Source: Prauserella marina
GTDB taxonomy: Bacteria; Actinomycetota; Actinomycetes; Mycobacteriales; Pseudonocardiaceae
Length of the DNA: 64,000 bases
Assembly: GCF_002240355.1 (NCBI RefSeq)
Contig: NZ_CP016353.1
Location: 1,724,501 to 1,788,500 of the forward strand
Direction of reading: 5' to 3'
Position numbers and translations under genes: made by a program. This document shows positions 43,845 through 54,180 of the stretch, piece after piece; positions within the stretch are counted from its first letter, which is position 1, and every line of letters begins with the position of its first letter. The notes below the pieces were generated by a model. That model did no database searches. It was not told where the DNA came from and was given only the letters and a program-made list of their open reading frames with translations.

Positions 43845-44435
43845 ATGACTGCCGGCACCGTGGCCGATGGCACGAGATCGCGATTGCTCGCCACGGCACT
43901 CACGTTGTTCAGTGAGCACGGCGTCGAGGGAACGTCATTGCAGATGATCGCGGCCGAGCTCGGGGTCACCAAGGCCGCGGTGTACTACCACTTCAAGACC
44001 AAGGACGAGATCACCGAAGCCGTGGCGGCACCGGCGCTGCGCGAGCTGGACGCCGTGATCGACGAGGCGCTGGCTCAGCGGAGCAGGGGCGCGCAGATCG
44101 ACCACGCGCTGGCCGGGTTCGCCGATCTCGTCGTTCAGCACCGCGCGCTTGTTGCCCTTTTCAACAGTGACCCCGGAATCATGAGGGCAATCGATCGTTC
44201 GCTCAGCGGCAACGAGAACCTGATGACCCGCCTGATGACGATCCTCGTGGGTCCCGAACCCGACTTCGCGGACCGGATCACCGTGCACGTCGTGCTCGTC
44301 GGTCTCGCGATGGCGGGTGGCGCGGTGGAGTACCGCGACATCGACGACGACACGTTGCGGGGACAGCTCATCGAGGTCGGCAGAAAACTGCTCGGCAGGC
44401 GCCGGAAGCGTGCCCCCGCTAACCAGAACTCGTAG
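43845..44435 (+). CDS. TetR-family repressor of the MMPL exporter
   Basis: A 196-aa regulator. ATG at 43845 (MTAGTVADG) has GAGGAGG 6 nt upstream; the TTG at 43827 lies before it and is not used. HTH: TSLQMIAAELGVTKAAVYYHFKTKDE. The C-terminal ligand domain is typical of TetR proteins for lipophilic ligands. It is divergent from the MMPL gene and converges with kptA, overlapping it by 17 bp. Confidence 0.92.
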   Translation: MTAGTVADGTRSRLLATALTLFSEHGVEGTSLQMIAAELGVTKAAVYYHFKTKDEITEAVAAPALRELDAVIDEALAQRSRGAQIDHALAGFADLVVQHRALVALFNSDPGIMRAIDRSLSGNENLMTRLMTILVGPEPDFADRITVHVVLVGLAMAGGAVEYRDIDDDTLRGQLIEVGRKLLGRRRKRAPANQNS

Positions 44436-44976
44436 GGATACTCAGGAATCTCGGCGGCACCTCACGCGCCAGCCACACCCCATTGGCGCTCAGCCGGAAC
44501 TCGTGCCCCTCCCGTGTCATCGCGGCCGCGTCGACGGTCAGCACCACCGGCTCGCCACGCCGGGATCCCACTGTCCTCGCGGTGCCCACGGTCGCGGAGA
44601 GATGCACGTCGTGCCGCTTCATCGGGAGCAGACCGGATTCGCGGATGGTGGGAAGGAACGCGGCGACGGTGCCGTGATAGAGCAGCGCCGGTGGGACCCG
44701 GACGGGGAGATCGAGTTCGACGGCGACGCTGTGCCCCTGGTTCGCCCTGATCCTGGTACCCGTGTGGTCGAAGGCGAAGCGCCGCTTGTCGTTGGTGACC
44801 ACCACCTCGTTCAGCTGTGCGCGGGTGAGGGCGATTCCTTTTCCGGCGAGCGCGGCCAGCAGGACGTCGACCTCGACCCAGCCGCCTTCGTCGAGTTGAA
44901 TGCCGATGCGCTCGGGCGCATGGCGTAAGTACAGTGAGAGGCGCTTGGACAAGCGCACTCGGTGAATATCGTGCAT
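44419..44976 (-). CDS. kptA: RNA 2'-phosphotransferase
   Basis: A 185-aa Tpt1/KptA protein. The KptA signature is complete: SKRLSLYLRHAPE, NDKRRFAFD, IRANQGHSV, LYHGT and HDVHLSATVGTA. It removes a 2'-phosphate from RNA or related substrates using NAD, giving ADP-ribose-1'',2''-cyclic phosphate. Bacteria lack the fungal-type tRNA splicing that makes this substrate, so its in vivo target is unclear. Confidence 0.92.
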   Translation of the reverse strand: MHDIHRVRLSKRLSLYLRHAPERIGIQLDEGGWVEVDVLLAALAGKGIALTRAQLNEVVVTNDKRRFAFDHTGTRIRANQGHSVAVELDLPVRVPPALLYHGTVAAFLPTIRESGLLPMKRHDVHLSATVGTARTVGSRRGEPVVLTVDAAAMTREGHEFRLSANGVWLAREVPPRFLSIPTSSG

Positions 44977-45027: not shown

Positions 45028-45489
45028 TCAGATGCCGCCTTCCGCGGCAGGCTTGAGCAGGGGAGCGCCGGGGCCGAACCTGGCGAGCCGGTCGTCGACG
45101 TTGTGCAAACCGCAGGTACGCAGGGAAAGGCAGCCACACCCGACACAGCCGATCAACTGATCGCGCAGGCGCTGCAACGCGTCGATGCGCGCTTCGAGCT
45201 CTTCTCGCCAGTTGCGGGACAACCGGGCCCAGTCCGCCTTGGTCGGTGCGTGATCCTTCGGCAGCGTTTCCAGCGCCTCACCGATTTGTTCCAGGCTGAG
45301 CCCAACTCGCTGCGCCGCGCGGATGAACGCGATCCTGCGCAGCACGGAGCGCGAGTACCTGCGCTGATTGCCCGTCGAGCGTTCCGAGGTGATGAGGTTG
45401 CGGTCTTCGTAGAATCGGAGCGCCGTGTGCGGGACGCCGCTGCGTTCCGCGACCTGTCCGATACTCAGGTGGTCGGCAAGCTTGGTCAC
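45028..45489 (-). CDS. soxR: redox-sensing MerR regulator SoxR
   Basis: A 153-aa MerR-family protein with HTH LSIGQVAERSGVPHTALRFYED. The [2Fe-2S] site is Cys115-x2-Cys118-x-Cys120-x5-Cys126, the SoxR signature. In actinobacteria SoxR usually answers to redox-active compounds and controls a few oxidoreductase genes; no obvious target lies next to it here. Confidence 0.95.
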   Translation of the reverse strand: MTKLADHLSIGQVAERSGVPHTALRFYEDRNLITSERSTGNQRRYSRSVLRRIAFIRAAQRVGLSLEQIGEALETLPKDHAPTKADWARLSRNWREELEARIDALQRLRDQLIGCVGCGCLSLRTCGLHNVDDRLARFGPGAPLLKPAAEGGI

Positions 45490-45837: not shown

Positions 45838-46647
45838 TCAGGCGACGTGCTCCCGGTAGGAGGTCACGACGTCGGCGAGCACTTCGGCACCGGCTCGCTT
45901 CCACAGTTCGGCGTTGAACACCTCGACCTCGATCGGGCCGGTGTAGCCCGCCGCTTCCACGCAGGCCCGCAGCCCGCGGTGATCGATGGGGCCCTCGCCG
46001 GGCAGCGCCCTGCCCAGCAGCGTGTCGGTGAGCGGGACGAGTTGATCGCACACGTGGAAGCCGAGTATCCGGCCGTTCGCCCTCGCGATGGCGGCCTCGA
46101 TGCGAGGATCCCACCACACGGCGAACTCGTCGACGACGACCCCGACCGAGTCGGCGGGGTGCTCCTCCGCGATGTCCATCGCTTGATCCACAGTGGACAG
46201 AACGGACCGGTCGACGCACTGCATCGGGTGCAGTGGTTCGAGGCCGAGCTTGACGCCGTGCTCCCTCGCGAAGGGCGCGAGCTCGCCGACCGCGTCGGCC
46301 ACCCGCTGCCGCGACCCGGGCAGGTCGTTGCCCGCGACGCCGCCGACCACGAGCACCAGTACGTCCGTGCCGAGCTTGGCGGCTTCCTCGATGGCCTCCT
46401 TCGTCTGCGCGATGCCGTCCACAGTGGCTCCTTCCGGCGTGACACCGGTGAAGAAGCCGCCCCTGCACAGCGAGGAGACCTTGACGCCGTACTCCTTGAG
46501 TAGCGCGGCCGCCCTGTCGACACCGACCTCGGCGACCTTGTCCCTCCACAGCCCGATCCAGCCGACGCCCGCCTCGGCGCAGCCCGCGACGGCCTCGGGC
46601 AACGTCCAGTTCTTGGTGGTGATCTGGTTGAGGCTCAACCGGTCCAT
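45838..46647 (-). CDS. sugar phosphate isomerase/epimerase-type TIM-barrel protein
   Basis: A 269-aa xylose-isomerase-like TIM barrel (AP endonuclease 2 family). Typical pieces are LSLNQITTKNW, AEAGVGWIGLWRDK, LGLEPLHPMQC, VVDEFAVWWD and GFHVCDQL, with the metal-binding Glu/His/Asp set distributed as usual. The substrate is unknown. Its ATG overlaps the stop of the DUF993 gene, so both are one operon. Confidence 0.88.
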   Translation of the reverse strand: MDRLSLNQITTKNWTLPEAVAGCAEAGVGWIGLWRDKVAEVGVDRAAALLKEYGVKVSSLCRGGFFTGVTPEGATVDGIAQTKEAIEEAAKLGTDVLVLVVGGVAGNDLPGSRQRVADAVGELAPFAREHGVKLGLEPLHPMQCVDRSVLSTVDQAMDIAEEHPADSVGVVVDEFAVWWDPRIEAAIARANGRILGFHVCDQLVPLTDTLLGRALPGEGPIDHRGLRACVEAAGYTGPIEVEVFNAELWKRAGAEVLADVVTSYREHVA

Positions 46648-47801
46648 CAGGTCACTCCTGCCGTCGCGAGCAGCGGCCGCATCCTGGCCACCGCGAGATC
46701 GGGGTCGGTCAGCACGCCCGCTTCGTCGGCGAGGCGGAGCACGTCGGCGAGGTGGGTGATCGAGCGGGCCGATTCGAGGCCGCCGACCATCCGGAACGCG
46801 GGCTGATGGCCGTTGAGGTAGGCGAGGAACACGACGCCGACCTTGTAGTGCCGGGTCGGCGCGCGGAAGATCTCACGGGACAGCGCGACGGTCGGGTCGA
46901 GCAGTTCGCGAAAACCCGCCGTGTCGCCGGTGCCGAGAAGGGACAGCGCCGCTCCGGCAACGGGCGCGATGGGATCGAAGATGCCGAGCAATGCCTCGCT
47001 GTGTCCCCGCTCGTCGCCCTCGATCAGCTCGGGATAGTTGAAATCGTCGCCGGTGTAACACGCGACGCCCTCCGGCAGCGCGCGCCGGAAGCGGCGCTCG
47101 ATGTCGGCGTCGAGCACGGAGACCTTCACCCCGGCGATGACCGAGGAGTGCGCGGCGCACAACGCGGCGAGTTCGTCGGCAGCCGCCGAGACGTCGGTGT
47201 GGCCCCAGTAGCCGGAAAGGGCGGGATCGAACTGCTCGCCGAGCCAGTGCAGCAGAACCGGGCCTTCCGTCACGGACAGCAGTTTGCCGTACGCGGCGTG
47301 GTAGTCGGCTGGTCCGTTTGCCGCCGCGGCGAGCGCCCTGCTGGCCATGATGACCGGAACGGCGCCCTCCTCGGCGACGAGGTCGAGTTGTTCCCTCCAC
47401 GCGCCGACGATGTCGTCCACAGTGGATGGACCTGGCGGAAGCTGATCGGTGCCCACTCCGGCGCACCACCGGCCGCCACGCGCGCGAGCCTCCGCGCCGG
47501 TGCGCCTGATCAGTTCCTTTGTCGTCTCCCAGTCGAGGCCCATTCCGCGTTGTGCGGTGTCCATCGCCTCGGCGACGCCGAGCCCGCAGGACCACAGGTG
47601 GTGCCGGAAGGCGAGTGTCGTGTCCCAGTCGACGCGGACGGTGCTTGCGGGGTCCTCCGCGCTGAGCGGGTCGGCGACCACGTGCGCGGCCGCGTAGGCA
47701 ACGCGGGGGTGCGTGCCCTCGCTCGGCGCCGGCGCGGTGCGCCCGGACGGCGACCACTCTCGCGGCGTCCCTTCCCGGCGGGGTAACAGCAACGCAGTCA
47801 T
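46647..47801 (-). CDS. DUF993 family protein (dihydrodipicolinate-synthase-like TIM barrel)
   Basis: A 384-aa protein of the DUF993 family, thought to have a DapA-like barrel. Possible active-site pieces are RVDWDTTLAFRHHLWSCGLG, GKLLSVTEGPVLLHWLGEQFDP and VIAGVKVSVLD, where VKVSVLD may hold the Schiff-base lysine. The chemistry is unproven. It is preceded by a promoter with tandem LacI operators, and followed by the isomerase gene. Confidence 0.85.
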   Translation of the reverse strand: MTALLLPRREGTPREWSPSGRTAPAPSEGTHPRVAYAAAHVVADPLSAEDPASTVRVDWDTTLAFRHHLWSCGLGVAEAMDTAQRGMGLDWETTKELIRRTGAEARARGGRWCAGVGTDQLPPGPSTVDDIVGAWREQLDLVAEEGAVPVIMASRALAAAANGPADYHAAYGKLLSVTEGPVLLHWLGEQFDPALSGYWGHTDVSAAADELAALCAAHSSVIAGVKVSVLDADIERRFRRALPEGVACYTGDDFNYPELIEGDERGHSEALLGIFDPIAPVAGAALSLLGTGDTAGFRELLDPTVALSREIFRAPTRHYKVGVVFLAYLNGHQPAFRMVGGLESARSITHLADVLRLADEAGVLTDPDLAVARMRPLLATAGVT

Positions 47802-47812
47802 GTCCCTCTCCC

Positions 47813-47873
47813 TGAAAGCGCTTGCAAGAAAGCGTTTTCAGCAACCCTAGGACATGGCCGGTCCTTCCGACAA
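47813..47873 (-). promoter_or_regulatory. promoter and tandem LacI operators ahead of DUF993 operon
   Basis: Two 14-bp near-palindromes abut: TGAAAGCGCTTGCA (47813-47826) and AGAAAGCGTTTTCA (47827-47840). On the minus strand TTGTCG (47873-47868), 18 bp, TAGGGT (47849-47844) puts the start point inside the second operator. The same operator type lies before the ABC transporter at 50213-50239. Confidence 0.72.
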
Positions 47874-47956
47874 GAGCGGGACCCGAACGCGTGCCGGGCG
47901 GAGAAACCGCCCACGGGCAGGCGGAACCGGCCCGCGAGGTTCACAACGCGATCCGC

Positions 47957-49123
47957 TCAGCAGGCGAGTACGTCGACGGCGAGGTCGCGAACGACGTCCT
48001 CGTCGACCTCGACCCCGAGCCCTGGGCCGGCCGGAACCTCGGCGACCCCGCCGGAGATCCGCACGGTTTCCCCTGTCGCGTAAGCGGACTCGACGAACTG
48101 CCGCCCGTTGAGGTCGACCGGGGTGTCGATGCCGAAAGCCGCGAAAAGATGCAGTGACGCGGCGAGGCCGAGGTCGGAATCGGTGAGCCCGGAGCCCATC
48201 AACCGGACCCCGCAGTCCTCGGCGAGCGCGCACAACCGCAGGGACAGCGTCAGTCCGCCACTGCGCTGCACCTTGGCGATCGCGACGTCGACGGCGTCGA
48301 GCTTGACGAAGGTCGCCAGATCGGTGGGGTGGCGCAGGCTTTCGTCGAGCGCGACCGGAACGGGGGAGTGCTCCCGCAGTCTGCGCAGCCCGGCGACATC
48401 GTTGGCAGGCAAGGGTTGCTCGAACGCGGTCACGCCGAGCGGGGCCAGTTCCCTCGCCATCCGCAGCGCGCCGTCGGCCGTGAACGCCTGGTTGGCGTCG
48501 ACCCACAGCGGCGCGTCTGGCGCGGCGGCTCTCACCGCCCTCACGACCGCGAGATCCTCGCCGGGGGAGTGCAGGCCGATCTTGACCTTGAACGCCTCGT
48601 AGCCGAGCGCCCCGCCTTCGGCGACGTGCTCGGCGACCTCGCTCGCCGTCTGCCCCGACACCATCCAGCCGAGCGCGACGCGGTCGCTGCGCCGCCTGCC
48701 CCACAGCGTGCTCACCGGCACGCCCAGCGCCCTGCCGAGCAGGTCGTGCAGTGCCATGTCGACGGCGCCCTTCGCCAGCGGCGAGCCGATGGTGAAACCG
48801 CGGTTGATGGCCCGGTCGAACGCGGCGTTCACGCCGTCGAGATCCCAGCACGGCTTGCCGGTGACGGCGGGCGCGAGGTAGCGGTCGATGGTGGTGACGA
48901 TCGACTCCGCCGTCTCGTAGGTCCACGCGGGGATCGGCGTTGCCTCACCCCATCCGCACACCCCGTCGGCACTGACCTTGACGAGTACCCTGATGCTCGG
49001 TGTGCCCGCGACCGCGACGGCTCCTCCGGACACCCCGAAGGACCGCAAGGTGGGCAGCGCGACCGCGAAGGTCTCGATCCGCTCGATCCGCAGCTCGCGC
49101 AGCGTCGAATCCACGAAAGCCAT
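47957..49123 (-). CDS. enolase-superfamily enzyme (muconate-lactonising/mandelate racemase-like)
   Basis: A 388-aa enolase-superfamily enzyme of the MLE subgroup. The catalytic set is visible: the KxK lysines in FKVKIG, metal ligands in VDANQAF, FEQPL and ALDESL, and the distal lysine in IAKVQRSGG. The C-terminal GSGLTDSDLGLAASLHLF is typical of cycloisomerase-like members. It could epimerise, dehydrate or cycloisomerise an acid; the substrate is unknown. It is 3 bp downstream of the LacI gene, so probably co-transcribed with its regulator. Confidence 0.9.
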   Translation of the reverse strand: MAFVDSTLRELRIERIETFAVALPTLRSFGVSGGAVAVAGTPSIRVLVKVSADGVCGWGEATPIPAWTYETAESIVTTIDRYLAPAVTGKPCWDLDGVNAAFDRAINRGFTIGSPLAKGAVDMALHDLLGRALGVPVSTLWGRRRSDRVALGWMVSGQTASEVAEHVAEGGALGYEAFKVKIGLHSPGEDLAVVRAVRAAAPDAPLWVDANQAFTADGALRMARELAPLGVTAFEQPLPANDVAGLRRLREHSPVPVALDESLRHPTDLATFVKLDAVDVAIAKVQRSGGLTLSLRLCALAEDCGVRLMGSGLTDSDLGLAASLHLFAAFGIDTPVDLNGRQFVESAYATGETVRISGGVAEVPAGPGLGVEVDEDVVRDLAVDVLAC

Positions 49124-49126
49124 GAC

Positions 49127-50155
49127 TCACACCTCCTTCGTGCTCTGCCGGACGACGACCTCGCCCGGCAGCCGCAGCACCCTGCTCCTGCTGCCCCTGT
49201 TGTCCCTGATCGCCAGCTCCATGGCTCGTTCTCCGAGTTCTTCCAGTGGCAGCGCCACGGTGGTCAGCGCGGGGGTGAGATCACGGACGACGGGAATGTC
49301 GTCGAAACCGGCCAGCGACACGTCGTCCGGTACCGAGCGGCCCGCCTCGCGCAGCGCGGTGAGCGCGCCGATGGCCATGACGTCGGTGACCGCGAAAACG
49401 CACGTGGCGTCGAGTCCCCTCGCGAGCAGTTCCGACATCGCCGCGTGCCCGCCGTCGCGCGTGAACGCGGCCTCGACGATCGCTGACTCCGGCAGCTCGA
49501 CTCCCGCCTCGGCCAGTGCTTCCCTGAACCCGGCGAGCCGGTCGACGACGGTGGTGAGCGCGCGGGGGCCCGCGAGCACCGCGAAGCGGCGGTGTCCCAT
49601 ACCCAGCAACGTTCTTGCCAGCTCCGCCGCGCCCTCCCTGTTTTCCGGCTGCACGCTGTCGACCCGGAGACTGCGGTGCCTGCTGACGACGGCGACCTGG
49701 CCGCCGCCCCTGCGGTAGGGGTCGATCTCCGCGGCGAGCGCGCGTTCCCACGCCTTGTCCTCGAAGCCGGAACCGACGAGCAGGATCGCCGAGGCCCGTT
49801 GCGCGCGCAGCATGGAGATGTAGGCGATCTCCTTGTTCGGGTCCCGGAAGGTGCTCGCCAGCATGACGAGCAGATCGCTGTCGCCGGCCACGCGCATGAC
49901 TCCTCGCGCGATGGCCGCGAAGTAGGGGTCGCTGACGTCGTGGCAGATGACACCGACCGTGCGGTGCGAGGCCCCCGCGAGCGCCTGCGCGTGTGCGTTG
50001 GGGGTGTAGGCGAGCTTTTCCGCGGCGGCGAGCACGCGCTCGCGCAGATCCGCTCGCACCTTGGTGGTTCCGTTGAGGGCCCTGGACGCCGTCGCCAGTG
50101 ACACCTCGGCGGCGCGGGCGACGTCTTCGAGCGTCACGTGCGGCCTGCCGTCCAT
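49127..50155 (-). CDS. LacI-family regulator of the catabolic cluster
   Basis: A 342-aa LacI/GalR protein. ATG at 50155 (MDGRPHVTLEDVA) has AGGAG 6 nt upstream. HTH: VTLEDVARAAEVSLATASRALNG; the rest is a periplasmic-binding-like ligand domain (DPYFAAIARGVMRVA, SLAGFDDIPVV). Operators with the LacI-type centre AAAGCGCNTT lie at its own divergent promoter and at the DUF993 operon, which defines a local regulon. Confidence 0.94.
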   Translation of the reverse strand: MDGRPHVTLEDVARAAEVSLATASRALNGTTKVRADLRERVLAAAEKLAYTPNAHAQALAGASHRTVGVICHDVSDPYFAAIARGVMRVAGDSDLLVMLASTFRDPNKEIAYISMLRAQRASAILLVGSGFEDKAWERALAAEIDPYRRGGGQVAVVSRHRSLRVDSVQPENREGAAELARTLLGMGHRRFAVLAGPRALTTVVDRLAGFREALAEAGVELPESAIVEAAFTRDGGHAAMSELLARGLDATCVFAVTDVMAIGALTALREAGRSVPDDVSLAGFDDIPVVRDLTPALTTVALPLEELGERAMELAIRDNRGSRSRVLRLPGEVVVRQSTKEV

Positions 50156-50180
50156 ATGCAACTCCTGGTAAAAGAACGCT

Positions 50181-50239
50181 TGACCGAGTATCCGAGCCTG
50201 CATACTCTACCTGAAAGCGCATTCAGAAAGCGCATTCAG
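50181..50239 (+). promoter_or_regulatory. promoter and tandem LacI operators ahead of the ABC importer
   Basis: TTGACC (50181-50186), 17 bp, TACTCT (50204-50209) is a good promoter. TGAAAGCGCATTCA (50213-50226) and AGAAAGCGCATTCA (50226-50239) cover the expected start point at about 50216. Bound LacI would block initiation. Confidence 0.78.
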
Positions 50240-50299
50240 CACGCGAGTCCCGGTCTGGTTCCGGTGCTTTCCGACACGTTCGCCGATGAACGGAGGGTC

Positions 50300-51169
50300 A
50301 TGGTCACGCAGAGTCAGCCGACGCGGACCGAGCAGGCAACGTCGGCTGGGGTCACCGAGCGGGCACGTCCGGGGATGGCGCAGCGGCTCGGTGGTTTTCT
50401 CGAAAAGGCATGGCGGCCCTTCGCGCTGCTCGCCGCGCTGTTCGTGGCGTGGTGGGGGGTCACGGCGGCCGAGTGGGTCGAGCCCTACCTCGTCCCTTCG
50501 CCTGGCGACACGTTCGAGGCCATCGCCTCGCGCCCGGAGTACTTCTGGGAGCACACCTGGACCACGACGTACGAGACGTTGCTCGGGTTCGTCATCGCGG
50601 CGGTGATCGGTGTCTTCGCCGCGGTCGTCATGGTGCAGTCGGCCACCGTCGAGCGCACCCTGTACCCACTGCTGCTGTTCGCGCAGGTGATTCCGAAGAT
50701 CGCGATCGCGCCGCTTTTCGTGGTGTGGCTCGGTTTCGGTATCGGGCCCAAGATCGTCGTCGCGGTATTGATGGCGTTCTTCCCCGTCGTCATCTCCATG
50801 GTCACCGGGCTCAAGTCGGTCGACCCGGAAATGCTCCAGCTGTCGGCCACGATGGGAGCCAAGCCGGGGCAGACCTTCTGGAAGATCCGGTTCCCCGCCT
50901 CGTTGCCGCACCTGTTCTCGGGGCTCAAGGTCGCGGCGACCATGGCCGTCACCGGCGCCGTCGTCGGTGAGTTCGTCGGTGCCGACGCCGGTCTCGGCTT
51001 CGTCATCTTGCAGGCGAACGGAAATCTGGACACCCCGGTGCTTTTCGCCGGGCTGTTGATCATGTCGTTGCTCGGCGTCCTGCTGTTCGTGCTCGTGGAA
51101 TGGCTGGAACAGCTCGTGCTGCCCTGGCACGCGAGCCGCCGGACCGACGGCGTCACCACAACCCTGTGA
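50300..51169 (+). CDS. ABC importer permease (SsuC/TauC/ThiX-like)
   Basis: A 289-aa permease with six helices and the EAA-type loop SATMGAKPGQTFWKIRFPASLPHLFSGLKV (partly quoted). ATG at 50300 follows CGGAGGG. It belongs to the sulfonate/nitrate/pyrimidine-precursor importer group, not to the carbohydrate CUT families. First gene of an operon with the binding protein and ATPase. Confidence 0.92.
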   Translation: MVTQSQPTRTEQATSAGVTERARPGMAQRLGGFLEKAWRPFALLAALFVAWWGVTAAEWVEPYLVPSPGDTFEAIASRPEYFWEHTWTTTYETLLGFVIAAVIGVFAAVVMVQSATVERTLYPLLLFAQVIPKIAIAPLFVVWLGFGIGPKIVVAVLMAFFPVVISMVTGLKSVDPEMLQLSATMGAKPGQTFWKIRFPASLPHLFSGLKVAATMAVTGAVVGEFVGADAGLGFVILQANGNLDTPVLFAGLLIMSLLGVLLFVLVEWLEQLVLPWHASRRTDGVTTTL

Positions 51170-51184
51170 GGCAAAGGAAAACGC

Positions 51185-52204
51185 ATGAAATTACCCGCAC
51201 TCGTCGCCGGTGTCGTCGCGGTGCTGCTCTTCGCCACGGGCTGTGGCGGCGGCGGTCAGGAGACCACGACCAACGCCGAAGGCCAGACGCTCGACAAGGT
51301 CACCCTCACCCTCAACTGGTACCCCTACGGTGAGCACGCGCCGTTCTACTACGGCAAGGCTCAGGGCATCTACGAGAAGCACGGCATCGACCTCGACATC
51401 AGGGCGGGCCAGGGATCGCAGAAGACGGTGCAGGCCACCGCCGCCGGGCAAACCGACTTCGGCTGGGCCGACACGCCCGCGGTGCTTGCCGGTGTCTCGC
51501 AGGGACTCGACGTGAAGAGCATCGGCGTGTTCCTTCAGACGACGCCGTCCTCGGTCCAGTTCTTCACCGAGGAGAACGTCAACTCGCCCGCCGATCTCAA
51601 GGGCAAGACCATCGCCAGCACGGCGGGTGACGCGCTCACCAAGACCTTCCCGACCTTCCTCAAGGCCAACGGGCTCACCGAGAACGACGTCAACATCCAG
51701 AACACCGACGCCGCGGGCAAGATGGCCGCCGTCATGTCCGGTCAGACCGACGCGCTGCTCGGCTACGCGACCGACCAGGGCCCGACCATGCAGGAGAAGG
51801 CGGGCAAGGAGGTCTCCTACCTCCGCTTCGCCGACAACGGGCTCAACTTCTACAGCAACGGGTTGCTCGCCTCGCAGGAACTCATCGACGACCGGGGCGA
51901 TCTCGCGCAGCGCATGGTGACAGCCACCAGCGAGGCGTGGGCCGAGGCGCAGGGTGACCAGCAGGCCGCGGTGGCCGCCATGGAGGGCGCCTCGGAGCAG
52001 CTTCCCTCGGAGCAGGTGCTCACCGAACAGCTCGCCTCGACGCTGGAACTGCTGCACACCGAGTCGACCGAAGGTGAGCGGCCCGGCGTGAACACCGAGG
52101 CCGACTGGAACGCGACGATCAAGGTCTTCGCCGACGCGGGAGTCATCGAGAGCGCGGAGGAACCCGGCGCCTACTGGGTCTCCGACCTGGCCCCCAAGGA
52201 ATAG
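51185..52204 (+). CDS. NMT1/SsuA-like substrate-binding lipoprotein
   Basis: A 339-aa lipoprotein with lipobox ATGC (residues about 18-21). The NMT1/THI5-like domain is recognised by TLNWYPYGEHAPFYYGKAQG, IYEKHGIDLDI, TDFGWADTPAVL and DLKGKTIAST. Relatives bind thiamin pyrimidine precursors, alkanesulfonates, nitrate or aromatic acids. The true ligand is unknown. Confidence 0.92.
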   Translation: MKLPALVAGVVAVLLFATGCGGGGQETTTNAEGQTLDKVTLTLNWYPYGEHAPFYYGKAQGIYEKHGIDLDIRAGQGSQKTVQATAAGQTDFGWADTPAVLAGVSQGLDVKSIGVFLQTTPSSVQFFTEENVNSPADLKGKTIASTAGDALTKTFPTFLKANGLTENDVNIQNTDAAGKMAAVMSGQTDALLGYATDQGPTMQEKAGKEVSYLRFADNGLNFYSNGLLASQELIDDRGDLAQRMVTATSEAWAEAQGDQQAAVAAMEGASEQLPSEQVLTEQLASTLELLHTESTEGERPGVNTEADWNATIKVFADAGVIESAEEPGAYWVSDLAPKE

Positions 52205-52235
52205 CTGGCACCGAATGAAAAGGCAGGAGACGCCC

Positions 52236-53012
52236 ATGTCCGGCTACGCGGTCGAGATCGAGGACGTCGCGGTGCGGTTTCGCACCAAGAAAAGGGATGT
52301 CACGGCGCTGCGCGACGTCACGATGCGGGTGGACCCCGGCGAGTTCGTCGCCATCGTGGGGCCTTCCGGGTGCGGTAAGTCGACGTTGCTGAAACTCGCG
52401 TCGGGGCTGCTCGCCCCTTCGACCGGCTCGGTGAAGCTGCTCGGCGACACCGTGTCGGGGCCGCGCAAGGACATCGGTTACGTCTTCCAGAAGGCGGCAC
52501 TGCTGGAATGGCGAACCGCGAGGAAGAACATCCTGCTCCAGGCCGAAATGCGCAAGATGCCGCAGAAGGAAGCGGCCGAACGCGTCGACGAGCTCATCGC
52601 GATGACCGGGTTGGGCGGTTTCGAGGACGCCTATCCGCACGAATTGTCGGGAGGGATGCAGCAGCGCGTCGCGTTGTGCCGCGCGCTGCTGCATCGTCCT
52701 CCCGTGTTGCTGATGGACGAGCCCTTCGGGGCGCTCGACGCGCTCACCAGGGAACAGATGAACGTCGAGTTGCGGCGCATCTGGCAGGAGACGAAGACGA
52801 CCGTGCTGCTGGTGACCCACTCGATCTCGGAGGCGGTGTACCTGGCGGACAGGGTCGTGATGATCACCGCGAGGCCGGGGACGGTCGCCGGTGTCGTCGA
52901 GGTCAACCTCCCCGCCGAGCGCGACTACGGCAAAACCATGTCGGAACCGGAGTTCGCGAAGGCGACCCGGCACATCCGCGACCATCTGGGCGCCGCGTCG
53001 GCGGCGGAGTGA
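52236..53012 (+). CDS. ABC importer ATP-binding protein (SsuB/TauB-like)
   Basis: A 258-aa ATPase. Walker A GPSGCGKST, Q-loop YVFQKAALLEW, signature LSGGMQQRVALCRAL, Walker B LLMDEPFGALD and the switch His in LLVTHSISEA are all present. ATG at 52236 is preferred over 52215 because AGGAG lies 7 nt upstream. It completes the importer and is followed 10 bp later by the dehydrogenase gene. Confidence 0.95.
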   Translation: MSGYAVEIEDVAVRFRTKKRDVTALRDVTMRVDPGEFVAIVGPSGCGKSTLLKLASGLLAPSTGSVKLLGDTVSGPRKDIGYVFQKAALLEWRTARKNILLQAEMRKMPQKEAAERVDELIAMTGLGGFEDAYPHELSGGMQQRVALCRALLHRPPVLLMDEPFGALDALTREQMNVELRRIWQETKTTVLLVTHSISEAVYLADRVVMITARPGTVAGVVEVNLPAERDYGKTMSEPEFAKATRHIRDHLGAASAAE

Positions 53013-53022
53013 AAGGCTGGGT

Positions 53023-54180
53023 ATGGCGAACGAGGAACGGTCCGTCGGGATCGTGATGAACGGTGTCACCGGGCGCATGGGCTACCGGCAGCACCTTGTC
53101 CGGTCGATACTGGCGATCAGGGAGCAGGGTGGCGTGCGGCTGCCCGACGGGACGATCCTCCGGCCGGAGCCCATTCTGGTGGGGCGCAACGAGAACAAGC
53201 TCGCGGCGATCGCCAAGGAACACGGGCTCGACCGGTGGACGACCGACCTCGGCGAGGCGCTGTCGACGGCCGGTGCGGAGATCTACTTCGACGCGCAGGT
53301 GACCAGCCACAGGGTGGAGTCCATCAGCGCCGCGATCGAGGCCGGACTGCACGTCTACACCGAGAAGCCGATCGCGGAGGACACCGAGGCCGCGTTGCGG
53401 CTGGGCAGGCTGGCCCGCGACGCGGGCGTGAAGGCCGGGGTCGTACAGGACAAGCTGTTCCTTCCCGGGCTTCGCAAGCTCAAGCGTCTCGTCGACGGCG
53501 GGTTCTTCGGCCGGATCCTTTCCGTGCGCGGCGAATTCGGGTACTGGGTCTTCGAGGGCGACTGGCAGGAAGCGCAACGTCCATCGTGGAACTACCGGGC
53601 CGAGGACGGCGGCGGCATCACGATCGACATGTTCTGCCACTGGCGGTACGTGCTTGAGGAGATCTTCGCCCCGGTGCGCTCGGTGCAGGCGCTCGCGGCG
53701 ACGCACATCCCGCGAAGGGTCGACGAGCGGGGTGACACCTACGACTGCACGGCGGACGACGCGGCGTACGGCATCTTCGAGCTGGACGGCGGAATCGTCG
53801 CGCAGATCAACTCCTCGTGGGCGACGAGGGTGTTCAGGGACGAACTCGTCGAGTTCCATGTGGACGGTACGGAGGGCAGCGCCGTCGCGGGACTTCGCAG
53901 GTGCAGGGTCCAGCACCGGACGATGACGCCCAAACCGGTGTGGAATCCGGATCTGCCGGCGGGTGAGGACTTCCGCTCCCAGTGGCAGGAAGTGCCGGAC
54001 AACGACGAGTTCGACAACGGTTTCAAGGTGCAGTGGGAACTGTTCCTGCGCCACGTTGCCGCGGGCGAACCGTTCCCGTGGGACTTCCTGGCCGGCGCGC
54101 GGGGCGTGCAACTCGCCGAGCTCGGGCTGCGCTCGGCCGAGGAGGGGCGGCGTATCCCGGTGTCCGAACTGAGCCTGTGA
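53023..54180 (+). CDS. Gfo/Idh/MocA-family dehydrogenase
   Basis: A 385-aa oxidoreductase. The nucleotide site near the start is atypical (GIVMNGVTGRMGYRQHL); EKPIAED is the conserved Glu-Lys-Pro motif. Residues GYWVFEGDWQEAQRPSWNYRAEDGGGI belong to the C-terminal substrate half, with the HWR motif after DMFCHWR. Family members oxidise hydroxyls of sugars, inositols or their acids. It closes the transporter operon and ends at a strong hairpin. Confidence 0.92.
   Translation: MANEERSVGIVMNGVTGRMGYRQHLVRSILAIREQGGVRLPDGTILRPEPILVGRNENKLAAIAKEHGLDRWTTDLGEALSTAGAEIYFDAQVTSHRVESISAAIEAGLHVYTEKPIAEDTEAALRLGRLARDAGVKAGVVQDKLFLPGLRKLKRLVDGGFFGRILSVRGEFGYWVFEGDWQEAQRPSWNYRAEDGGGITIDMFCHWRYVLEEIFAPVRSVQALAATHIPRRVDERGDTYDCTADDAAYGIFELDGGIVAQINSSWATRVFRDELVEFHVDGTEGSAVAGLRRCRVQHRTMTPKPVWNPDLPAGEDFRSQWQEVPDNDEFDNGFKVQWELFLRHVAAGEPFPWDFLAGARGVQLAELGLRSAEEGRRIPVSELSL

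What the first reader, a model, noticed from the sequence alone, without database searches (positions are those of the whole stretch)
45838..54180. LacI-controlled catabolic cluster with unknown substrate
Six enzyme or transport roles are grouped under one regulator: a TIM-barrel isomerase, a DUF993 protein, an enolase-superfamily enzyme, LacI, an NMT1/SsuA-type ABC importer and a Gfo/Idh/MocA dehydrogenase. Matching tandem operators lie at both promoters (47813-47840 and 50213-50239), so the regulon is defined by sequence. The enzymes look sugar- or polyol-like, yet the importer is of the sulfonate/pyrimidine-precursor kind instead of the usual carbohydrate families. I know of no described pathway with this combination.
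Basis: partly seen in the sequence, partly recalled or inferred. Interest (0 to 1): 0.8.

Follow-up and report, generated by a model that had tools for sequence, protein, structure and literature searches.

The report
Extracellular sugar-oxidation and uptake regulon
A soil-type actinobacterium appears to use one switch protein to turn on, together, the making of the cofactor PQQ, several secreted sugar-oxidising proteins, an unusual importer and a set of widespread but unstudied enzymes, which looks like an undescribed route for oxidising a carbohydrate outside the cell and consuming the product inside.

Summary
Eight genes (TIM, DUF993, MLE-type enolase-superfamily enzyme, LacI, three-gene NMT1-type importer, Gfo/Idh/MocA) share four 14-bp LacI-type operators at two promoters (6 matches over both strands; 0.03 expected). 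The combination is conserved: GFO-DUF993-TIM is a widespread core; SBPs 38-40% identical lie beside it in Azospirillum and Chelatococcus; in 200 genomes of the own family 44 of 44 importer carriers have DUF993. In 12 genomes where importer and core lie apart, both carry the same exact operator.

The regulon extends outside the window. Nine of nine sites found in the 7-Mb genome fall at six units: the two here, plus a GSDH protein, a ThuA-GSDH-PKD-CBM6 protein with a TIM protein, a LamG protein, and the PQQ-biosynthesis operon. The first three, not pqq, adjoin the cluster in relatives.

My reading: a carbohydrate is oxidised outside by PQQ-dependent enzymes; its acid or keto product enters by the NMT1 importer and is degraded by MLE, GFO, TIM and DUF993. 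The regulon is supported by comparison; substrate, chemistry and PQQ use are inferred, and 5 of 27 importer carriers lack a PqqC match.

The parts
45838..46647 (-). TIM: xylose-isomerase-like TIM-barrel protein (AP_endonuc_2), 269 aa
   Evidence: Pfam PF01261 131.7 bits; adjacent to DUF993 in 77 of 80 loci
46647..47801 (-). DUF993 protein, 384 aa
   Evidence: Pfam PF06187 566 bits; nearest solved structure 4dnh, E 2.2e-132, uncharacterised
47813..47826 (.). LacI-type operator TGAAAGCGCTTGCA before DUF993-TIM
47827..47840 (.). LacI-type operator AGAAAGCGTTTTCA, second of the pair
47957..49123 (-). MLE: enolase-superfamily protein of the muconate-cycloisomerase-like subgroup, 388 aa
   Evidence: PF13378/PF02746; motifs AFKVKIG, WVDANQ, FEQPL, ALDES in 13 of 13 sequences, A[IV]AKVQ in 13 of 13
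49127..50155 (-). LacI-family regulator, 342 aa (in-frame ATG also at 50203)
   Evidence: PF00356 + PF13377
50212..50225 (.). LacI-type operator TGAAAGCGCATTCA between LacI and importer
50225..50238 (.). LacI-type operator AGAAAGCGCATTCA, second of the pair (shares base 50225)
50300..51169 (+). ABC importer permease, 289 aa
   Evidence: PF00528 121.6 bits
51185..52204 (+). SBP: NMT1/THI5-type binding protein, 339 aa, with LNWYPYGEHAPFY signature
   Evidence: PF09084 155 bits; of the seven best plasmid hits the three with this signature lie beside DUF993, the four without it do not
52236..53012 (+). ABC importer ATPase, 258 aa
   Evidence: PF00005 119 bits
53023..54180 (+). GFO: Gfo/Idh/MocA-family dehydrogenase, 385 aa
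   Evidence: PF22725, PF02894, PF01408; nearest solved structure 3oqb, E 2.2e-152, named only 'Oxidoreductase'

Best explanation
The cluster is the cytoplasmic and uptake half of a LacI-controlled carbohydrate-oxidation regulon. Step 1 (inferred): outside the membrane, GSDH-domain proteins, supplied with PQQ by the co-regulated pqqACDEB operon and helped by ThuA, LamG, CBM6 and a TIM protein with a twin-arginine start, oxidise a carbohydrate or glycoside to an acid, lactone or keto-sugar. Step 2 (inferred): the product is not a plain sugar, so it is taken up by an NMT1-type importer and not by a sugar ABC importer. Step 3 (inferred): inside, MLE acts on the acid or lactone, GFO oxidises a hydroxyl with NAD(P), TIM eliminates or isomerises, and DUF993 splits or rearranges the keto product; the glycerate kinase found beside DUF993 in other genera suggests that a three-carbon product enters as glycerate. 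Shown by comparison: the shared operator, its presence at six units of the own genome, its persistence when the parts lie apart in related genera, and the co-occurrence of the parts. Not shown: LacI binding, inducer, substrate, any enzyme activity, secretion, PQQ use by the GSDH proteins.
For: Own genome: 9 sites with at most one mismatch to WGAAAGCGCWTTCA in 7 Mb, 9 of 9 at 6 units; reversed-pattern control 0 forward, 1 reverse. Sites before orthologues in relatives: GSDH in G014, G053, G084 (tandem; 3 of 3 other genomes of the genus in the sample) and in G090, G110; ThuA in G014, G053, G084, G110; LamG in G014, G053, G084. pqq operon: PqqC 262.7, PqqE 533, PqqB 335 bits, all over equivalog cut-offs; sites in or before it in the own genome and in 7 others, G014, G053, G084, G090, G095, G110, G132. 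Linkage in relatives: ThuA after GFO or by the importer; GSDH downstream of DUF993 or after the importer. Separate loci, same site: GGAAAGCGCTTTCC before both importer and GFO in 12 of 12 importer-bearing genomes among 13 chosen; only 2 sites per genome in G086, G107, G124. Family of 200 genomes: 44 of 44 importer carriers have DUF993 (111 of 200 overall); 19 of 19 MLE carriers have it within 5 kb of the SBP; 108 genomes have both GFO and DUF993. Beyond the family: the best 3 of 496 plasmid records for the SBP carry importer-enolase-GFO-DUF993-TIM.
Against: No substrate or activity is known for any part. 5 of 27 importer carriers searched have no PqqC match at E 1e-30 (G024, G043, G058, G076, G099), and G058, G043, G076 and G099 do carry ThuA-GSDH; 3 more have only a distant PqqC (G033, G115, G148). 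Where a close pqq operon exists in g27, g16, g8 and g31 no operator was found within two mismatches. So PQQ control is at best a feature of some genera. 67 of the 111 DUF993 genomes of the family lack the importer, and most triad loci show neither importer nor secreted genes, so external oxidation cannot be essential to the core. The GSDH protein matches hedgehog-interacting protein best and GSDH structures only weakly; its G084 orthologue has no NCBIfam match at E 0.001. Copies of GGAAAGCGCTTTCC in g8 and g22 also precede genes that I read by eye as cellulase, xylanase and sugar ABC, so the site can serve other LacI paralogues. G043 and G058 do not show a site at both separated loci; in g27 and g43 the two sites are alike, not identical, and g27 has two LacI genes. 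Several sites in relatives were left unassigned (for instance L213-L215; G014 C33; G110 C1:2797089). Relatives are not independent, so counts overstate significance.
Confidence: 0.45

Rival explanations
1. A 3-keto-glycoside route: the secreted proteins and GFO oxidise glycosides at C3, and the two TIM proteins, ThuA and LamG-like proteins cleave them by elimination or hydrolysis. The importer brings in a planar keto-glycal or a released aglycone. PQQ may be only one of the electron acceptors.
For: GFO plus AP_endonuc_2 plus ThuA are parts of described 3-oxidation routes (recalled); in G053 a further operator-like site lies before a PA14-CBM-3-keto-disaccharide hydrolase protein, PF06439 133.8 bits; levoglucosan dehydrogenase is among the GFO's weak NCBIfam matches, 45.7 bits against a cut-off of 650; the nearest solved relative of the SBP binds a pyrimidine, 3ix1; importer carriers with ThuA but without PqqC fit it better than the PQQ reading.
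Against: No MLE or DUF993 is part of the described routes (recalled); the GFO model cut-offs are far from met.
Confidence: 0.3
2. Only the window genes are one regulon. The sites in trans belong to other LacI paralogues with the same operator, and the link to PQQ is coincidental.
For: LacI-family operators are much alike (recalled); exact copies of the g8 site precede genes read by eye as polysaccharide genes; pqq lacks the operator in four genera and is itself absent from 5 of 27 importer carriers.
Against: Nine of nine sites of the own genome fall at six units; ThuA, GSDH and LamG are physically linked to the importer or triad in relatives.
Confidence: 0.17
3. The importer serves a classic ligand (thiamin pyrimidine, sulfonate, taurine) and the neighbouring enzymes are unrelated passengers.
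For: NMT1/THI5 family, nearest solved relative a thiamin-precursor binder.
Against: 44 of 44 carriers in the family have DUF993; among the seven best plasmid SBPs, the three with the signature LNWYxYGEHAPFY lie beside DUF993 and the four without it do not; SsuA and taurine models score 86.2 and 25.9 against cut-offs 163.5 and 304.25; three of four importer loci found outside the family sit with triad or ThuA genes.
Confidence: 0.06

Closest known systems
Periplasmic (direct) oxidation of sugars by PQQ dehydrogenases followed by uptake of aldonic acids, as in pseudomonads and acetic acid bacteria (recalled)
   Same: Oxidation outside, acid taken up, PQQ made for the purpose (inferred here)
   Different: Actinobacterium; GSDH-domain proteins with ThuA, PKD and CBM6; LacI-type sites shared with pqq; NMT1-type ABC importer; DUF993 core
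3-keto-glycoside pathways with Gfo/Idh/MocA dehydrogenase and AP_endonuc_2 enzymes (levoglucosan, trehalose ThuA/ThuB; recalled)
   Same: GFO, TIM and ThuA families; a PF06439 gene with an operator-like site in G053
   Different: DUF993, MLE and NMT1 importer are not parts of these (recalled)
myo-inositol and 5-keto-gluconate pathways (IolG, IolO)
   Same: GFO and TIM give weak matches, 53.0 bits to IolG and 39.9 to IolO
   Different: Cut-offs 355 and 300 not met; none of the eight window genes matches another inositol-pathway model in the rows shown
Sinorhizobium meliloti SMc04130-SMc04135 region (3ju2 is labelled SMc04130; SMc04132, SMc04133 and SMc04135 from one table passage of PMC12542648; that 4dnh is SMc04132 is recalled)
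   Same: TIM, uncharacterised protein (DUF993, recalled) and oxidoreductase with near locus numbers
   Different: Binding protein listed as amino acid or peptide type; no function given in the passage
SsuA/taurine/ThiY binding proteins
   Same: NMT1 family
   Different: Subfamily cut-offs not met; signature linked to DUF993 in the few loci compared

Membership tests
LacI-family regulon | LacI HTH plus sugar-type sensor domain | tested here: met
   PF00356 and PF13377/PF00532
LacI-family regulon | Palindromic operators at the regulated promoters, conserved in relatives | tested here: met
   G043 and G058 are exceptions
LacI-family regulon | Binding of the protein to the sites and release by an inducer | not testable with these tools
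   needs EMSA or DAP-seq
SsuA/taurine/sulfonate importer | NCBIfam score over cut-off | tested here: not met
   TIGR01728 86.2 of 163.5; TIGR01729 25.9 of 304.25
Muconate/chloromuconate cycloisomerase | TIGR02534 over cut-off | tested here: not met
   216.1 of 334.95
MLE subgroup of the enolase superfamily | KxK on strand 2, D-E-D/E metal ligands, K on strand 6 | tested here: met
   motifs kept in 13 of 13 sequences; residue roles recalled, no structure made
Dihydrodipicolinate synthase superfamily (for DUF993) | Significant profile similarity to DHDPS | tested here: not met
   hhalign probability 0.4% against 3 and 0.1% against 19 DHDPS proteins; NCBI names members so; my reading of K226 and TGDD as DHDPS-like is by eye only
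Inositol dehydrogenase IolG / levoglucosan dehydrogenase | Equivalog cut-off | tested here: not met
   53.0 of 355 and 45.7 of 650
PQQ biosynthesis operon | pqqA peptide, PqqB, PqqC, PqqE over equivalog cut-offs, pqqD | tested here: met
   PqqC, PqqE, PqqB over cut-off; pqqA peptide and an 87-aa pqqD-like frame read, neither scanned
PQQ-dependent GSDH-family dehydrogenase | GSDH domain with PQQ-binding residues and activity | tested here: inconclusive
   PF07995 over cut-off in both proteins; the G084 ThuA protein's domain aligns with quinoprotein glucose dehydrogenase 1c9u, E 4.6e-11; TIGR03606 62.5 of 434.55; residues and activity not tested
3-keto-glycoside pathway | 3-oxidation and elimination activities | not testable with these tools
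   families only

The most novel reading that the evidence does not exclude
A previously undescribed catabolic strategy: one LacI protein switches on PQQ synthesis, secreted PQQ-dependent carbohydrate oxidation and an NMT1-type importer dedicated to the oxidised product, which is degraded through the core GFO-DUF993-TIM, with DUF993 a new C-C lyase family ending in C3 acids. The core alone, with tripartite tricarboxylate or sugar importers, would be the same pathway in bacteria of several phyla that take the acid ready-made.
Probability: 0.36. Interest if true: 0.82.

Novelty: new variant of a known kind. Interest (0 to 1): 0.66.

Why it matters
DUF993 genes occur from Streptomyces to Paenibacillus, rhizobia and Marinobacterium, one member has an uncharacterised solved structure, and no paper in the library searched names the family. 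The regulon supplies what was missing to assign it: a compact set of co-regulated partners, a possible site of the first oxidation, a defined importer whose ligand can be screened, and an operator that can be tested. It would also be, if confirmed, a case where cofactor synthesis (PQQ) is under the same repressor as one catabolic route in an actinobacterium.

Tried and rejected
In one search, 25 DHDPS loci (L244-L268) were extracted, 6 had stops in the cut frame and were dropped, 19 used; L269 and L270 were left out.

Acid-sugar dehydratase for the enolase member: rejected on catalytic motifs. Two other enolase kinds sit beside the triad elsewhere, so the gene is replaceable: one of about 440-470 aa in Chelatococcus, Azospirillum, Paroceanicella, Harenicola and S. 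fredii and one read by eye as MR-like in Nocardiopsis.

Naming the substrate from neighbours: importers differ (TctABC annotated in L113 and read by eye in L015, L071; sugar ABC annotated in L116, L122, L125, L126; amino-acid type by eye in L057), and a variant replaces GFO by an SDR with CoA-transferase, enoyl-CoA hydratase or acyl-CoA dehydrogenase genes. I could not settle on one compound.

Literature, ten searches: DUF993; 7VPF; SMc0413x/4DNH/3OQB; PF06187/IPR009334; and six multi-term searches. No listed title or abstract start described the cluster; the library holds open-licence papers only; one table passage of PMC12542648; term search in the main text of PMC4052901, none of six terms present. 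All other listed papers: listing only. A 3-keto-glycan paper that I recalled is not held.


Full report
OBSERVATION. Two operator pairs lie at 47813-47840 and 50212-50238; in the 64-kb window the pattern WGAAAGCGCWTTCA with up to one mismatch matches six times over both strands, all at these two places, against 0.03 expected. LacI-MLE runs left and importer-GFO right from the pair at 50.2 kb; DUF993-TIM has its own pair.

CORE MODULE. In these, TIM is adjacent in 77 of 80 and GFO in 66 of 80. The 14 without adjacent GFO are L002, L004 and L054 (GFO divergent, across the importer), L003 (GFO about 9 kb away), L069 (GFO in two hits), the five Amycolatopsis loci L005-L009 (no GFO in the stretch), L058 (contig end), and L027, L053, L057 (no adjacent TIM either). 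Hosts include Streptomyces, Nocardiopsis, Paenibacillus, Bacillus, Marinobacterium, Harenicola and Thermosporothrix. In 50 of these loci with a LacI hit and a forward GFO, I took the best 14-bp palindrome with central CG in the 260 bases before GFO (ties by alphabet): AGAAAGCGCTTGCT in 40, GGAAAGCGCTTTCA in 4, AGAAAGCGCTTACT in 3, and one each of GGAAAGCGCTTGCT, GGAAAGCGCTTTCT and AGATAACGTTTTCT. This suggests that LacI control of the core is old.

THE IMPORTER BELONGS TO IT. A search of 72,556 plasmids with the binding protein alone found 496 records; the best three (38-40% identity) are Azospirillum lipoferum AZO_p1, Chelatococcus daeguensis pTAD1 and Chelatococcus CO-6, and each carries permease-SBP-ATPase-enolase-GFO-DUF993-TIM in a row. 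The next four (L129-L132) have no DUF993 in the stretch and lack the signature LNWYxYGEHAPFY that the first three share with the window. The signature was also found in L002, L004 and L054, but nearly all loci held then had been fetched by DUF993, so the seven plasmids are the only fair test. In 200 genomes of the own family DUF993 is in 111, GFO in 109, both in 108; the SBP is in 44, all with DUF993; MLE is in 19, all within 5 kb of the SBP. Only 19 of the 44 have SBP and DUF993 within 10 kb, and 67 of the 111 have no SBP at the threshold used. The genomes are related, so the hypergeometric figure is an overstatement. In 396 genomes of the phylum 4 besides the own carry the SBP at E 1e-50: two (G249, G477) have it with LacI, GFO, DUF993, TIM and glycerate kinase and a shared site (one is the reverse complement of the other), one (G306) with LacI and ThuA/TIM, and one (G424) with an MLE-like gene but no DUF993 in the stretch.

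OPERATORS IN TRANS. In 14 genomes I read both the importer locus and a separate DUF993 locus. Twelve show a site with at most two mismatches at both; G043 and G058 do not. In g8 and g16 the two sites are identical, GGAAAGCGCTTTCC; in g27 and g43 they are alike. Searching 13 genomes chosen from g8, g16 and g22 whole, the 12 that have the importer all carry this exact site before both the importer and GFO; G086, G107 and G124 have no third copy; the reversed pattern has none in 13. Other copies precede GSDH-LamG (L199, G192) but also, in g8 and g22, genes read by eye as cellulase, xylanase and sugar ABC, and in G055 a gene next to another LacI, so the site alone is not proof.

THE REST OF THE REGULON. 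In the own genome the pattern with at most one mismatch hits nine positions: four in the window, one before a LamG protein (71% to its relative), two before a GSDH-domain protein, one before a ThuA-GSDH-PKD-CBM6 protein followed by a TIM protein, and one in the PQQ operon between pqqA and pqqC. Signal peptides, the twin-arginine start included, were read by eye. A looser site, GGATAGCGCTTTCC, precedes pqqA. Orthologues in relatives carry sites too: the GSDH tandem in G014, G053 and G084 and a single site in G090 and G110; the ThuA site in G014, G053, G084 and G110; the LamG site in G014, G053 and G084. PqqC was sought in 27 importer carriers: 22 have a match at E 1e-30, 5 have none (G024, G043, G058, G076, G099). 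The close PqqC operons have one or two sites within two mismatches in 7 of 19 genomes (G014, G053, G084, G095, G132, G090, G110); the other 12 (G027, G065, G066, G086, G093, G124, G131, G162, G192, G007, G055, and G051 with three mismatches) do not; the eight distant PqqC matches have none. In relatives ThuA lies directly after GFO or by the importer in L002, L004, L134-L138, L144-L148, L152, L187-L189, L193 (some are the same genome twice); GSDH lies downstream of DUF993 in L090, L093, L094, L097, L103, L109 (4-kb stretches, TIM not checked there), after TIM in L154/L194, and after the importer in L141 and L142. In the window GFO is followed by a gene read by eye as threonine dehydratase; in L188 the ThuA and TIM genes lie between these two.

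MECHANISM. My proposal is stated in the best explanation. The GSDH domain of the G084 ThuA protein aligns with quinoprotein glucose dehydrogenase (E 4.6e-11) and its CBM6 with glycan-binding modules; the other GSDH protein is more distant. The weak point is PQQ: carriers without PqqC but with ThuA-GSDH exist, so either these proteins use another cofactor or scavenged PQQ, or the PQQ link holds in some genera only. MLE keeps its motifs. GFO keeps EKP (114-116), D202 and H206 in 20 of 20 sequences, consistent with an active dehydrogenase. TIM keeps E137, D173, E240 and E242 in 11 of 11 and H198 in 10. Glycerate kinase lies near DUF993 in L015, L114-L116, L118, L119, L124, L126, L272 and L274, hence the C3 ending. 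A 5-keto-hexonate split by retro-aldol to a C3 ketone and tartronate semialdehyde would fit, but this is a guess.

KNOWN OR NEW. No model cut-off for SsuA, taurine, muconate cycloisomerase, IolG, IolO or levoglucosan dehydrogenase is met. No paper in the library names DUF993 or its accessions; the library covers open-licence papers only. I rate it a new variant of a known kind: a LacI catabolic regulon with external oxidation, made of a set of parts that I found unreported in these searches. The regulon without pqq I hold at about 0.8, the whole functional reading at 0.45.

Noticed in passing
window 44419-44976 (-): Frame that reads like an RNA 2'-phosphotransferase (KptA/Tpt1); family recalled, not scanned.
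   Followed up: no
window 45028-45489 (-): MerR-type regulator with a CxxCxC cysteine cluster like SoxR, next to the cluster; recalled, not scanned.
   Followed up: no
L115, L117, L119, L121, L122, L125: In rhizobia and Caballeronia DUF993-TIM sits with an SDR in place of GFO plus CoA-transferase and enoyl-CoA hydratase and/or acyl-CoA dehydrogenase and ETF genes: a second pathway type using DUF993.
   Followed up: partly
L112 6390-7778, L113 6332-7729, L071 7340-8662, L120 10165-11589: A diverged enolase-superfamily kind (about 440-470 aa; of two scanned, one had a single sub-threshold Pfam match) beside the triad in Alphaproteobacteria, with KxK, D[AG]NEQ, EQP, DE[AS]D and KxCKG motifs.
   Followed up: partly
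L127 8905-10095: A diverged DUF993 gene close to a type I polyketide synthase on a Streptomyces yangpuensis plasmid, possibly a biosynthetic use.
   Followed up: no
L212 2995-5976 (-): PA14-CBM-3-keto-disaccharide hydrolase protein with an operator-like site just before it in G053.
   Followed up: partly
L129, L131: Sister NMT1 importers without DUF993 in the stretch, next to an amidohydrolase-like gene read by eye.
   Followed up: no
L144, L145, L146 (G099, G076, G043): Importer, GFO and ThuA-GSDH present in genomes with no PqqC match, so the ThuA-GSDH proteins there may not use self-made PQQ.
   Followed up: partly
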